From Acidovorax sp. RAC01 (lineage in GTDB: Bacteria; Pseudomonadota; Gammaproteobacteria; Burkholderiales; Burkholderiaceae_C), in contig NZ_CP016447.1 of assembly GCF_001714725.1 (NCBI RefSeq), positions 1,813,001 to 1,877,000 of the forward strand: a stretch of DNA of 64,000 nt. The letters are read 5' to 3'. Each line of letters starts with the position of its first letter. Within the stretch, counting starts at the first letter, position 1. This document shows, piece by piece, positions 757 through 63,839 of the stretch. Made by a program: the position numbers and the translations under genes. Under the pieces are notes generated by a model that worked only from the letters and a program-made list of their open reading frames with translations, was not told where the DNA came from and did no database searches.

Positions 757-787
757 GCGGCCCTGCGGCCACCGCTTAAAATCCCGG

Positions 788-883
788 CTGGCCCAAGGAG
801 CGTTGCAGCGGCAGACCCCACCCAGGACGGTGGTGCGTCCCCGTCAGGCTTGGGCTGGCACACACCCTCACAACGACGCTCAC
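788..883 (+). ncRNA. S-adenosylhomocysteine (SAH) riboswitch upstream of metH
   Basis: The sequence carries the SAH-riboswitch signatures in order. CCCAAGGAGCGTTGCAGC (from 792) begins the P1 strand and conserved core. A hairpin CCACC/GGTGG follows around 819-832, then CAGGCTTGGG (845-854), which closes P1 (CCCAAG with CTTGGG). The downstream CAACGACGCTCAC (871-883) can form the pseudoknot with GAGCGTTG. This class senses SAH and raises expression of the SAH-recycling genes (ahcY, metH, metF). The metH start codon is 45 bases further on. The conserved blocks are read directly; ligand response is inferred from the class. Confidence 0.88.
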
Positions 884-927
884 CTGTTTTTCTGCTGTTC
901 CTTGTACAGGTGAGTGAAGTGAGCCCT

Positions 928-58854: not shown

Positions 58855-59592
58855 ATGCGCCGCGCTGACCGCCTGTTCCAGATCGTCCAGCTCATCCGCG
58901 GGCGGCGCCTGTCCACGGCCGCTTTCCTGGCCGAGCGGCTGGAGGTGTCCCCGCGCACCATCTACCGCGACGTGGCAGACCTGCAGCACCAGGGCGTGCC
59001 CATCGAGGGCGAGGCCGGTGTGGGCTACCGCCTGGGGGCGGGCTTCGAGCTCCCGCCGCTGATGTTCACGCAGGGCGAGGCCAACGCCCTGGTGGCCGCC
59101 GCCCGCCTGGCGCAGTCGTGGCTGGATGCCGGGCTGGCCCGCGAGGTGGAGGGCGCCCTGGGCAAGATCCTGTCGGTGCTACCCCCCGCCGCCCGCGTGG
59201 CCGCCGAGGCCCAGGCCCTGTACGCCCCACCCGTGGGCCTCGACGCCCGCGCCCAGGTCACGCTGCAGGTGCTGCGCGAGGCCGTGCACAGCTGCCACGT
59301 GGTCCAGATCGACTATGCCGACGTACATGGCCGCCCCAGCCTGCGCCGCCTGCGCCCGCTGGGCTGCTTTTACTGGGGCAAGGTCTGGACGCTGTCGGCC
59401 TGGTGCGAGCTGCGCAATGACTTCCGCGGCTTTCGCATCGACCGGATCGTGGCGGTTGCGGTGCTGGAGGAGCGCTTCAGGCAGGAGCCGGGGAAGACGC
59501 TGGCGGATTTGCTGCGCAAGGTGGAGGGGGAGCGGGAAAGGTGGGCTGCAGAGCGTGCGGAGGCACCAGGAGCAGGACACTCTGATGGGTGA
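58855..59592 (+). CDS. YafY-type HTH-WYL transcriptional regulator
   Basis: The 245-residue protein has an N-terminal DeoR-like winged helix (MRRADRLFQIVQLIRGRRLSTAAFLAERLEVSPRTIYRDVADLQHQG, residues 1-50) and a WYL ligand-sensing domain in which the eponymous motif reads VWTLSAWCELRNDFRGFRIDRI (near 175-197). WYL proteins sense small ligands or nucleic acids and can activate or repress. Its place after a GST and a GyrI-like gene suggests local control. The C-terminal 25 residues are charged and non-conserved. Confidence 0.9.
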   Translation: MRRADRLFQIVQLIRGRRLSTAAFLAERLEVSPRTIYRDVADLQHQGVPIEGEAGVGYRLGAGFELPPLMFTQGEANALVAAARLAQSWLDAGLAREVEGALGKILSVLPPAARVAAEAQALYAPPVGLDARAQVTLQVLREAVHSCHVVQIDYADVHGRPSLRRLRPLGCFYWGKVWTLSAWCELRNDFRGFRIDRIVAVAVLEERFRQEPGKTLADLLRKVEGERERWAAERAEAPGAGHSDG

Positions 59593-59646
59593 TGCATTGC
59601 CGAACAAGGGCTATAGGCTCCACGGAACCCTTGTCTTGTAAAATTT

Positions 59647-59712
59647 CGGCCGGGTGTCGCGCCGCGTTGGTGCGCCAGGTGTTGCGAAAGGTCGGGCCGC
59701 CTCGCGGCTTTT
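59647..59712 (+). ncRNA. Probable nhaA-I (Li+-I type) riboswitch with terminator expression platform
   Basis: The leader contains CCGGGTGTCGC, a hairpin CGCGCC/GGTGCG (59658-59674) and CAGGTGTTGCGAAAGGTCGG. These are blocks I associate with the nhaA-I motif. Helix P1 can form from CGGCC (59647) and GGCCG (59695). The same 3' strand can alternatively pair as GCCGC-CTC-GCGGC (59696-59708), which is followed by TTTT. The two folds exclude each other, which is classic riboswitch logic. The next gene, 15 bases on, is a Na+/H+ antiporter. Confidence 0.7.
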
Positions 59713-59726
59713 CATCGACCGCCTCC

Positions 59727-60983
59727 ATGTCTGACACCCACATCCAGTGGATGGCTGCTGCCATCTTCTCCATCGCCCTCGTACACACCTTTGCGGTCAA
59801 GCAGTTCGAGAAGCTGTCCCATCGTTTCCCCAGGCACGCTGGCCTCTTCCATCTGCTGGGAGAGGTGGAAGTGGTTTTCGGCTTCTGGGCCATCGTGCTG
59901 ATCGTCGGCCTTGCGCTGGGCACGGGTGGCGCGGATGCACTGGCGTACGCGGAGTCGCGGAACTACACCGAACCCCTGTTCGTCTTTGTCGTGATGGTGA
60001 TTGCCGCATCACGGCCGGTACTGCTGACCGTGATGAATCTCTCGAACGGCCTTGCGCAGAGGCTTCCCGCCAGCACGCCTGTGGCCACTGCCTGGCTGGG
60101 TCTGGCGGCCGTACCGCTGCTGGGCTCGCTGATCACCGAGCCGGCGGCGATGACGATTGCCGCACTCATGCTTGCTCCGCAGGTCTTTCGGCCCCTGGTG
60201 CCCGAGCGAGCCAAGTACTTCGCGCTCGGAGTCCTGTTCGTCAATGTGTCGATTGGAGGGACGCTGACGGCTTACGCCGCTCCTCCGGTGCTCATGGTGG
60301 CCGCCACCTGGCAGTGGGACAGCGCCTTCATGCTCGCAAATTTTGGGTGGAAGGCTGCCATTGCAGTCTGCATCAATGCCACTGCCGCTACTTTCGTGCT
60401 TCGCGACTCCCTGAATTCGGCACCGTCCGGCGTCAGCACGGCAGTAGCGCCCGTGCCGTGGTCGGTCGTCGCAGTGCACCTGGGTTTTCTGGCCGGGGTT
60501 GTGCTGCTGGCACACCATCCCGTGGCCTTCCTGGCCCTGTTCCTGATGTTTCTTAGCTTCACCCAGGCCTATGGCCGGCATCAGAGCCCCCTCATCCTCA
60601 AGGAGGCGCTGCTGGTGGGCTTTTTCCTTGCCGGATTGGTGGTGCTCGGCGGCATGCAGCAGTGGTGGCTGCAACCTATCGTGTCCTCACTCGCGCCGCT
60701 GCAACTGTTCTTTGGTGCGCTGGGTCTTACCGCGATCACCGACAACGCAGCGCTCACCTATCTGGGCTCGCTCATTGTGGGGATGTCCGACGAGTCCAAA
60801 TACATGCTGGTGGCCGGGGCCGTGGCGGGCGGTGGGCTCACCGTGATCGCAAACGCGCCCAATCCGGCAGGTGTCGCGTTGCTCAAGCGCGGTTTTGCCG
60901 ACGAGACGATCAGCGCTGGCGGCCTTCTCATGGGCGCCCTCGCTCCCACTTGTGTGGCAGCGGCCGCCTTCCTGCTGCTTTGA
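59727..60983 (+). CDS. Putative Na+/H+ antiporter (Na_H_antiport_3-like)
   Basis: The 418-residue inner-membrane protein has about 11 helices. It has HLLGEVEVVFGFWAIVLIV, LLGSLITEPAAMTIAALMLAP, FVNVSIGGTLTAYAAPPVLMVAATWQWDSAFMLANFGWKAA and TAITDNAALTYLGSLIVG with polar/acidic residues in mid-membrane, plus a late GGGLTVIANAPNPAGVALLK. This is the ion-transporter (IT) superfamily layout. The leader riboswitch candidate fits a cation-exporting role. It is convergent with the glutathione peroxidase gene, with 30 bases between stops. Confidence 0.85.
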   Translation: MSDTHIQWMAAAIFSIALVHTFAVKQFEKLSHRFPRHAGLFHLLGEVEVVFGFWAIVLIVGLALGTGGADALAYAESRNYTEPLFVFVVMVIAASRPVLLTVMNLSNGLAQRLPASTPVATAWLGLAAVPLLGSLITEPAAMTIAALMLAPQVFRPLVPERAKYFALGVLFVNVSIGGTLTAYAAPPVLMVAATWQWDSAFMLANFGWKAAIAVCINATAATFVLRDSLNSAPSGVSTAVAPVPWSVVAVHLGFLAGVVLLAHHPVAFLALFLMFLSFTQAYGRHQSPLILKEALLVGFFLAGLVVLGGMQQWWLQPIVSSLAPLQLFFGALGLTAITDNAALTYLGSLIVGMSDESKYMLVAGAVAGGGLTVIANAPNPAGVALLKRGFADETISAGGLLMGALAPTCVAAAAFLLL

Positions 60984-61569: not shown

Positions 61570-62466
61570 TCAATGCGCCGGTGTGCCGCCGCGGCGAGAG
61601 GGCAGGGCAGCCAGCAGCGATGCCAGCAGGATCAGCGCCCCGCCCAGCAGCGTTTGCGCGTTGAGCGTGGCGGCGCCCAGCAGGGCCGACGACACGCTGG
61701 CAAACAGCACCTCCGAAAGCATTACCAGCGCGGTGGTGCCGGCCGCCAGCCGCGCAGCGCCGTATTGCAGCGCCCAGTTGCCCAGCATCAGCAAGCCAGC
61801 CAGCACCAGCGCGGTGATGGCCCAGGTGCTGTCGATGGCCGGAAAGGGCTCGACCACACCCATGTGCAGCCCGATGCCTGCCGTGGCCAGCGCCATCAGC
61901 ATGCAGCCGCCGAACATGGTGGCCATGCGGGCCGGCCCGGGCACGGCATGCAGGCGGCGCAGCGTGACGTTGGTCAGCGCAAACATGAAGCCGCCCAGCA
62001 GCGCCAGGCCATCGGCCAGGCTCAGGTTGTGCAATAACCGGGCTGCGGAGGTGCCCTGCGGCAGCAGCACCAGCACCACGCCCGCAAAGGCCAGCGCCAG
62101 GCGCATCAGCGCGGCGGGCGTAGGCCGCTCGCCCAGAATGCGCCAGGCCAGCAGCACGGCCCACGCGGGCATCAGATAGAACAGCAGGATCACACGCACC
62201 ACGTCGCCAATGGTCACGGCCCAGTTGAAGGCCACGTTGTTCAGGCCCGATGCCACCGCCAGCAGCCACAGCCCGGGGTGGTCGCGCAACTGGCGCACGA
62301 TGCCGGGGCGCCAGGCCAGCAGCGCCAGCAGCACCACCGCATACATGCAGGCCGTGGCCCACAGCGGGTGCAGCCCCGCCTGGTGCATGCGCTGAAACGG
62401 CCACCAGGCCAGGCCCCAGACAAAGGCGTTGAACAGCAGGGCGGCAAAGGGCAGGGGAGAATGCAT
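61570..62466 (-). CDS. EamA-family (DMT) transporter
   Basis: The 298-residue inner-membrane protein has ten helices in two EamA halves. It has ALLFNAFVWGLAWWPFQRMHQAG at the start, VASGLNNVAFNWAVTIGDVVRVILLFYLMPAWAVLLAW and, in the second half, LMLGNWALQYGAARLAAGTTALVMLSEVLFASVSSALLG. It exports metabolites or amino acids; the substrate is unknown. An IS5-family element sits only 18 bases upstream of the start codon and has replaced its native leader, so expression is probably altered. Confidence 0.88.
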   Translation of the reverse strand: MHSPLPFAALLFNAFVWGLAWWPFQRMHQAGLHPLWATACMYAVVLLALLAWRPGIVRQLRDHPGLWLLAVASGLNNVAFNWAVTIGDVVRVILLFYLMPAWAVLLAWRILGERPTPAALMRLALAFAGVVLVLLPQGTSAARLLHNLSLADGLALLGGFMFALTNVTLRRLHAVPGPARMATMFGGCMLMALATAGIGLHMGVVEPFPAIDSTWAITALVLAGLLMLGNWALQYGAARLAAGTTALVMLSEVLFASVSSALLGAATLNAQTLLGGALILLASLLAALPSRRGGTPAH

Positions 62467-62487
62467 TGAGAATAAAACCGGCTCTAG

Positions 62488-63793
62488 GGTCCCTCTGCAC
62501 AAATCCCTGCGCTGTGTGCCTGGACATGGCTGAAGCCCAGACAATAAGGCCATGAAGCAAAGCAGCCTGGGACTGAGCAACACCACCAAGCGCACGCGCA
62601 AGCGTGAATTCCTTGACTCCATGGAACTGGTGGTGCCCTGGGCTGAACTGGTCTCGCTGATAGAGCCCTACGCACCCGAGTGCGGACGCCGGGGCCAGCA
62701 GCCTTTTTCGGTGCAGATCCTGCTGCGCATCCATTTCATGCAGCAGTGGTTCAAGCTCAGCGACCCAGCCATGGAAGAAGCACTGCACGACGTGCCTGCC
62801 TTTCGGGACTTTGCCGGCCTGTCTCACTGGGATGAACACATCCCCAGTGAATCGAGCATCTTGCGTTTCAGGCATCTGCTGGAGCGCCACAAGCTGGCCG
62901 AACAAATACTCGCTACCGTCAATGCGCTGCTGCAGGCCAAAGGGCTGCAACTCAAAGCGGGCACGGTGGTGGATGCCACGCTCATTGCCGCACCCAGCTC
63001 CACCAAGAATCAAAAGGGCGAGCGCGACCCCGAGATGCACCAAAGCAAGAAGGGCAACCAGTGGTACTTCGGCATGAAGGCCCACATTGGCGTAGATGCG
63101 GACTCAGGCCTGGTGCACAGCGTTCGAGGCACCAGCGGCAATGTGAACGACGTGGTTGAAGCAAACAGTCTGCTGCATGGGCAAGAAACTGATGCCTTTG
63201 GTGACGCGGGCTACCAAGGGGTGGACAGGCGGCCCGATGCCAACAAGAACGTGCGATGGCATGTGGCCATGCGCCCTGGGTTGCGCCGGGCTCTGGACAA
63301 GGGCAACCCTGTGGGGGTGCTGATCGATCAACTTGAACGCACCAAGGCCAGCATCCGGGCCAGGGTGGAGCACCCGTTCCGAGTGATCAAGCAGCAGTTT
63401 GGATATGTGAAGGTGCGCTACCGTGGGCTCAAGAAGAACACGGCGCAGATCGTCACGCTATTTGCGCTGTCAAATCTGTGGATGGCAAGGCACAAACTGC
63501 TGGCCTGTCGGGGACAGGTGCGTCTGCAAGGGGCTTAATGCCCCGCGACGCCGGGCAATTGCCCTCGCGCAGCGCCTGCTGGGCGTGCCCAACTCTCGAA
63601 AGCAGGTGCTGTTTTAGTGCGGCCTCGCTATGGCACAGCCAGAACCGATTGGTGAAGAGGTTCCCTAGGGAGCCTCTGCCCAAATTAAGCGGCAAGTGTG
63701 CGCTGCGGATCGGGATGGGATGCAAGGCGCAAAACGCGGCAGACCGCCCGAGACAGCAGATGCACACGGCGCGCTGATTCGTGCAGAGGGCCC
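62488..63793 (+). mobile_element. IS5-family insertion sequence, 1306 bp, flanked by CTAG duplications
   Basis: Ends read GGTCCCTCTGCACAAATC (left, 62488) and the inverse of GGGCCCTCTGCACGAATC (right, to 63793). The 4-base CTAG occurs at 62484-62487 and 63794-63797, fitting the YTAR target of IS5 elements. One transposase gene is intact. The roughly 255 bases after the gene are non-coding and include an extra end-like sequence near 63666. The insertion lies within a repeat family B copy. Confidence 0.88.
62552..63538 (+). CDS. IS5-family DDE transposase
   Basis: The 328-residue transposase is very close in pattern to that of IS5 itself: RKREFLDSMELVVPWAELVSLIEPY, QPFSVQILLRIHFMQQWFKLSDPAMEEALHDV, then the DDE residues in VVDATLIAAPSSTKN, AFGDAGYQGVDRR and RARVEHPFRVIKQQFGYVK. 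KGNQWYFGMKAHIGVDADSGLVHS lies between the two Asp. Length equals the family norm, with no frameshift, so it appears functional. It is transcribed away from the EamA gene. Confidence 0.95.
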   Translation: MKQSSLGLSNTTKRTRKREFLDSMELVVPWAELVSLIEPYAPECGRRGQQPFSVQILLRIHFMQQWFKLSDPAMEEALHDVPAFRDFAGLSHWDEHIPSESSILRFRHLLERHKLAEQILATVNALLQAKGLQLKAGTVVDATLIAAPSSTKNQKGERDPEMHQSKKGNQWYFGMKAHIGVDADSGLVHSVRGTSGNVNDVVEANSLLHGQETDAFGDAGYQGVDRRPDANKNVRWHVAMRPGLRRALDKGNPVGVLIDQLERTKASIRARVEHPFRVIKQQFGYVKVRYRGLKKNTAQIVTLFALSNLWMARHKLLACRGQVRLQGA

Positions 63794-63839
63794 CTAGCGC
63801 TTGATGAATAAGCGCGAACAGCTATAAATTATGTAGCAA
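63792..63839 (-). repeat. Dispersed repeat family B, copy 7 (split by the IS element)
   Basis: Minus strand TTGCTACATAATTTATAGCT and CTTATTCATCAAGCGCTAG. The missing other end (ACCGGCTCTAG and TTGAG) lies left of the IS at about 62466-62487, so the IS inserted into the CTAG of this repeat. Confidence 0.7.

What the first reader, a model, noticed from the sequence alone, without database searches (positions are those of the whole stretch)
59647..59712. Probable nhaA-I (Li+-I) riboswitch controlling a Na+/H+ antiporter of a different family from NhaA
Conserved-looking blocks (CCGGGTGTCGC, CAGGTGTTGCGAAAGG) precede an antiporter gene. P1 (CGGCC/GGCCG) and a terminator hairpin (GCCGC/GCGGC plus TTTT) share the same strand, giving a complete switch in 66 bases. 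The block assignment is from memory of the class; the mutually exclusive pairing is read directly.
Basis: partly seen in the sequence, partly recalled or inferred. Interest (0 to 1): 0.7.

Follow-up and report, generated by a model that had tools for sequence, protein, structure and literature searches.

The report
Lithium riboswitch before PF07399 antiporter
A known kind of RNA switch that senses lithium sits at the start of the message for a poorly studied sodium/proton antiporter, and in related bacteria that combination is common and may stand in for the usual antiporter NhaA.

Summary
The aptamer call is right. Window 59652-59704 (+) matches Rfam nhaA-I (RF03057) at 41.3 bits, above the gathering score of 37, and is the genome's only match. 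nhaA-I is the published Li+-I riboswitch (PMC9646797). The gene, 59727-60983, is PF07399 (601.7 bits); its predicted fold is ion-transporter superfamily, nearest ArsB/INDY. So "different family from NhaA" holds, although the discovery paper already lists pfam07399 among "NhaA proteins". The switch anatomy needs correcting. The "terminator" has four T, is not called by the scan, and its T run is not conserved. A larger hairpin, 59690-59720, excludes aptamer P2 and lies just before the start codon, which favours translational ON control. Of 68 aptamer-bearing genomes among 299 sampled from the same family, 53 carry PF07399; this complete genome has no PF06965 NhaA match. New member of a known riboswitch class. 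Ligand and mechanism are inferred, not measured.

The parts
59639..59644 (+). predicted -10 box TAAAAT of the antiporter promoter
   Evidence: TAnnnT starting 12-15 nt before the aptamer's first G in 67 of 69 leaders (47 of 49 when one leader per genus is taken); shuffled mean 2.1, max 8; positional frequencies
59652..59652 (+). predicted transcription start, at or next to the first G of the aptamer (inferred from -10 spacing)
59652..59704 (+). nhaA-I (Li+-I) riboswitch aptamer
   Evidence: RF03057, 41.3 bits, gathering 37, model 1-55 of 55
59656..59676 (+). aptamer stem P1: 59656-59663 with 59669-59676, 7 of 8 pairs (one U-C mismatch)
59684..59705 (+). aptamer stem P2 with conserved loop CGGGCC (59693-59698); two bulged A
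   Evidence: alignment (59685-59704; outer pair 59684/59705 added by reading); core GGTCGGGCCGCC identical in 69 of 69 leaders found with the model
59690..59720 (+). alternative (ligand-free) hairpin: 59690-59694 with 59716-59720 and 59695-59700 with 59704-59709; excludes P2
   Evidence: 59690-59729 folds at -16.3 kcal/mol, z -2.22, 5 of 200 shuffles as stable; z -2.04 with only the part after the aptamer shuffled
59727..60983 (+). putative Na+/H+ antiporter, PF07399 (Na_H_antiport_3), 418 aa
   Evidence: 601.7 bits, profile 2-419 of 419; fold of ion-transporter superfamily

Best explanation
A Li+-I riboswitch that begins at the 5' end of a short message and turns on a PF07399 cation/proton antiporter. 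Shown by sequence: nhaA-I aptamer, PF07399 gene, a -10 box at a near-fixed distance, and a possible alternative hairpin (59690-59720) that uses the aptamer's P2 strand and core. Inferred: without Li+ the core GGUCGGGCCGC pairs with GCGGCU and CGACC just before the AUG and keeps the translation initiation region closed; Li+ binding holds P2 together, the hairpin cannot form, ribosomes start, and the antiporter expels Li+ (and probably Na+).
For: Full-length Rfam match over the curated cut-off, single in the genome. Across 69 leaders from the same family (49 genera) the core GGTCGGGCCGCC is identical in 69 of 69 (partly circular, since the model found them); P1 pairing, one leader per genus, is 78.6% against 58.7% (max 64.8%) when 3' arms are shuffled among leaders; P2 shows compensatory changes (GCGA/TCGC, GCGC/GCGC, GCAAA/TTTGC). 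Full Watson-Crick complement of CCGC between aptamer end and ATG in 47 of 63 leaders (shuffled mean 7.7, max 15), of GGTCG in 21 of 63 (mean 2.2, max 7). The class is validated as a Li+ ON switch, its authors speculate RBS control for most members, and a Ralstonia eutropha aptamer was among those probed in vitro (PMC9646797).
Against: The window's score is low for the set (7 of 70 matches score lower); P1 has one mismatch and P2 two bulged A. Thermodynamic folding of the aptamer alone (z +0.86) or of 59652-59735 (z +0.64) is no better than shuffles, and the best fold of 59652-59735 contains neither P2 nor the 59690-59720 hairpin. No clear Shine-Dalgarno is visible before the ATG, so what exactly is masked is uncertain. 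The CGACC arm is an exact complement in only a third of leaders, and the energy gain is modest (mean z -0.67, 42 of 59 negative, folds that start at the core, so P2 could not compete).
Confidence: 0.8

Rival explanations
1. Same Li+-I aptamer, but the switch works by intrinsic transcription termination at GCCGC-CTC-GCGGC followed by TTTT.
For: A GC-rich 5-bp hairpin followed by TTTT is in the sequence. The related Na+-I and Na+-II riboswitches use a terminator that competes with the aptamer (PMC9337991 passages; PMC9646797).
Against: Terminator scan of 59500-59800 finds 0 (shuffles mean 0.4). Longest T run before the ATG is under 4 in 52 of 63 leaders, although a complement of CCGC is common there. 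The T tract is itself inside the longer hairpin. The paper reports terminator-bearing variants only in Deltaproteobacteria.
Confidence: 0.13
2. A nhaA-I-type aptamer whose real ligand is Na+ (Na+-II variant) or both ions.
For: The gene family is annotated Na+/H+ antiporter. Na+-II variants arose inside the nhaA-I collection (PMC9646797).
Against: Described Na+-II members are deltaproteobacterial, with terminators, before genes of unknown function; this one is before an antiporter, with the core identical in 69 of 69 relatives, 14 of them before PF06965 NhaA. The key C/U position could not be mapped because figures are not held.
Confidence: 0.12
3. A decaying or non-functional aptamer copy kept by chance.
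For: Low score in the set, a P1 mismatch, an extra bulged A.
Against: The conserved core letters, the -10 spacing and the possible competing hairpin are intact. The nearest listed public protein is 96% identical, but its leader was not examined.
Confidence: 0.05

Closest known systems
Li+-I riboswitch (nhaA-I motif, Rfam RF03057)
   Same: Covariance model match over the cut-off, core blocks, position directly before a cation antiporter, hairpin downstream that competes with P2.
   Different: Gene is PF07399 rather than PF06965 NhaA (the paper lists both as NhaA proteins); aptamer appears to start at the transcript's first base.
Na+-I riboswitch (DUF1646 motif)
   Same: Similar consensus by the papers' account; ON switch by competition between P2 and a downstream hairpin.
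   Different: No family of that name among the 4 matches up to E 10 in 59400-59900; that the library holds a model for it was not checked.
Na+-II riboswitch (variant nhaA-I, Desulfobulbus propionicus)
   Same: Same parent motif; hairpin after the aptamer.
   Different: Described only in Deltaproteobacteria with intrinsic terminators and genes of unknown function (PMC9646797).
PF07399 transporters of the ion-transporter superfamily (ArsB, NhaB, CitMHS, DASS kin)
   Different: The solved structures listed are 7-15% identical over the aligned part; no sequence match in PDB at E up to 1; substrate unproven.

Membership tests
Li+-I riboswitch (nhaA-I, RF03057) | match to the covariance model over the curated gathering score | tested here: met
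   41.3 bits vs 37, model 1-55/55
Li+-I riboswitch (nhaA-I, RF03057) | conserved core GGGUG, CAGGU, GGUCGGGCCGCC | tested here: met
   present in the window
Li+-I riboswitch (nhaA-I, RF03057) | P1 and P2 helices kept by compensatory change in relatives | tested here: met
   P1 78.6% paired vs 58.7% shuffled, one leader per genus; P2 arm pairs listed there. Window itself: 7 of 8 P1 pairs
Li+-I riboswitch (nhaA-I, RF03057) | located before a cation transporter gene | tested here: met
   PF07399 gene starts 22 nt after the aptamer match ends
Li+-I riboswitch (nhaA-I, RF03057) | selective Li+ binding and Li+-dependent activation | not testable with these tools
   needs in-line probing and reporter assays
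Na+-I riboswitch (DUF1646) | match to its Rfam model | tested here: inconclusive
   not among the 4 matches up to E 10 in 59400-59900; presence of its model in the library was not checked
Na+-II riboswitch | C at the position equivalent to D. propionicus 54 | not testable with these tools
   figure and supplement with the numbering not available
Na+-II riboswitch | intrinsic terminator as expression platform | tested here: not met
   0 terminator-like sites in 59500-59800; T run not conserved
NhaA (PF06965) | Pfam PF06965 match of the controlled protein | tested here: not met
   only PF07399 reported at E up to 0.001; no PF06965 match in the genome at E up to 0.001
PF07399 Na_H_antiport_3 | profile match over the cut-off, full length | tested here: met
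   601.7 bits vs 25, profile 2-419/419
ion-transporter (IT) superfamily fold | structural match to solved members | tested here: met

The most novel reading that the evidence does not exclude
PF07399 proteins are the Li+ exporters of many bacteria of this family: antiporters of the ion-transporter-superfamily fold that have taken over from the unrelated-fold NhaA under the same Li+ riboswitch. In the 6 genomes of the sample that hold aptamer, PF07399 and PF06965 NhaA together, the aptamer sits on PF07399 each time.
Probability: 0.4. Interest if true: 0.5.

Novelty: new member of a known kind. Interest (0 to 1): 0.3.

Why it matters
It places a validated ion-sensing RNA class in front of a transporter family whose substrate is, as far as I could find, unproven, which gives a direct prediction: PF07399 proteins export Li+. 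In the sampled family PF07399, not NhaA, is the usual partner (53 of 70 aptamer matches), so the published grouping of pfam07399 with NhaA hides a swap between unrelated folds. The near-fixed -10 spacing also predicts aptamers that start at the first base of the message.

Tried and rejected
Folding of 59647-59712 does pair 59647-59651, but with 59690-59694, together with the hairpin.

Intrinsic terminator: see rival 1.

Sigma-70 promoter scan of 59500-59800: 0 sites. No -35 pattern stood out to me in the positional table; only the -10 is supported. The -15..-12 range used was chosen.

PDB sequence search: no relatives at E up to 1. NhaA solved structures are not among the 50 rows shown; that alone proves nothing.

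Plasmid search: 6 records with relatives of the gene; not followed further. Order-level scan: 21 of 399 genomes have a match at E 0.001 or better; the loci outside the family were not analysed. PF03600 search of the own genome: 2 places over the cut-off, not followed.

Named PF07399 loci (the best 80 of 560 relatives found): 27 of 80 had a loose core match within about 220 nt upstream; I judge 5 of these false by eye (L128, L137, L149, L170, L179: no aptamer around the match), leaving 22 of 80. None of the Massilia, Duganella and Janthinobacterium loci among the 80 is in the 22. In the family sample 45 of the 98 PF07399 genomes have no aptamer over the cut-off. So PF07399 is often not under this riboswitch.

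Rows dropped: one search used 63 of 69 leaders (L047, L049, L051, L053, L055, L066 left out because I set no start codon for them; several have a visibly different leader after the aptamer). Start codons were the first in-frame ATG for 52 and picked by eye for 11. The stretch tested there starts at the last base of the Rfam match, so part of a CCGC complement can be P2's own arm. One search used 59 of those 63 (four with under 8 nt between aptamer and chosen ATG left out). The sub-cut-off match L070 was left out of the leader counts. Shuffles were mononucleotide, and none of the counts corrects for phylogeny beyond one-per-genus subsets.

Full report
What is there. The Rfam scan of the whole window gives two matches over gathering scores: a SAH riboswitch at 789-888 and nhaA-I (RF03057) at 59652-59704, plus strand, 41.3 bits against a cut-off of 37. 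The alignment covers the whole model, and the genome (one contig of 4.57 Mb, 100% complete by the tool's figure) holds no second match. The nearest listed public relative of the controlled protein outside the window's own cluster is from an Acidovorax strain, 96% identical; I infer a bacterium close to Acidovorax (Comamonadaceae).

What is known of the RNA. nhaA-I is the Li+-I riboswitch, an ON switch for Li+ (PMC9646797; parts 1-3 of 6 read, passages). The paper writes 'NhaA proteins (pfam06965, pfam07399 and COG3004)', so the association with PF07399 is already counted there. Its authors speculate that most members control ribosome access; terminator-bearing variants were found only in Deltaproteobacteria, and the one tested senses Na+ (the concluding remarks also mention a tandem environmental example with terminators, of unknown specificity).

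Comparative evidence. The same model was searched in 299 genomes of the family: 69 have a match at E 0.001 or better, 68 over the cut-off, 70 matches in all. I oriented and read the 70. The gene after the aptamer is PF07399 in 52 plus one cut by a contig end (L068), PF06965 NhaA in 14 and a CitMHS-type transporter in 1. L051 has no antiporter frame nearby, and L070, below the cut-off, has only a sub-cut-off fragment of PF07399. PF07399 itself is in 98 of 299 genomes and PF06965 in 62 of 299, over the cut-offs. They share 11 genomes where 20.3 would be expected (Fisher p 0.004, no correction for phylogeny); 53 of the 68 aptamer genomes carry PF07399 (Fisher p 1e-18), and 47 of those 53 have no PF06965. 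The other side: 45 of the 98 PF07399 genomes have no aptamer over the cut-off. The window's own genome has no PF06965 match. In the six genomes with aptamer, PF07399 and PF06965 together, the aptamer is on PF07399.

Where the message starts. In 69 leaders a TAnnnT hexamer begins 12-15 nt before the aptamer's first G in 67 (47 of 49 taking one per genus; shuffles mean 2.1, max 8), most often at exactly -13 (33 leaders). In the window it is TAAAAT 59639-59644. This is inference from spacing, not a mapped start.

How it probably switches. P2 (59684-59692/59699-59705) and a hairpin over 59690-59720 use the same strand. The hairpin pairs GGUCG with CGACC and GGCCGC with GCGGCU, and ends 6 nt before the AUG. 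Folded alone, 59690-59729 gives -16.3 kcal/mol, z -2.22. Complements of CCGC and GGTCG between aptamer end and start codon are found far more often than in shuffles (47 of 63 against 7.7; 21 of 63 against 2.2). In folds that start at the core, 42 of 59 leaders pair at least four of the five GGUCG bases downstream. A run of four or more T, in contrast, is in 11 of 63, and the scan finds no terminator. I therefore favour control of translation initiation. Against this: the region before the AUG has no evident Shine-Dalgarno; energies of the aptamer alone and of 59652-59735 are not better than shuffles, and the best fold of 59652-59735 shows neither P2 nor this hairpin; and the outer arm is exact in only a third of leaders.

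Verdict. It is a new member of a known riboswitch class. The part worth following is the transporter: PF07399 accompanies this riboswitch in most aptamer-bearing genomes of the sample, occurs with NhaA less often than expected, and has a substrate I could not find proven. A literature search for its accession found 2 papers, and the parts or passages I read of them report no transport test of a protein named as PF07399.

Noticed in passing
window 777-888: SAH riboswitch (RF01057, 50.6 bits) before a large frame that looks to me like the cobalamin-dependent methionine synthase module (no family search run); a TAAAAT at 777-782 stands 6 nt before this aptamer's first base (7 nt in the Li+ riboswitch), so it too may start at +1.
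   Followed up: partly
window 62481-63800: IS5-type insertion element (transposase frame 62552-63538, NCBIfam transpos_IS5_4; 39-nt inverted ends 62481-62519 and 63762-63800, 82% complementary). The minus-strand EamA transporter frame 61570-62622 starts inside it, so its listed N-terminus is probably IS sequence.
   Followed up: partly
L044, L045, L047, L049, L053, L055, L066: A second group of NhaA leaders has a longer linker before P2 (such as GTTCAGCGC) and a different sequence after the aptamer, in some with a separate hairpin (L044, L045); their switch may work differently.
   Followed up: no
L051 and L070: L051: aptamer with promoter-like box but no antiporter frame found behind it; L070: a sub-cut-off aptamer before a fragment of PF07399. 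They look like remnants of lost genes.
   Followed up: no
L022 (genome G005): The PF07399 gene behind the aptamer is matched in two pieces (profile 2-234 and 242-419), as if interrupted; the genome has another nearly full PF07399 copy about 7 kb away.
   Followed up: no
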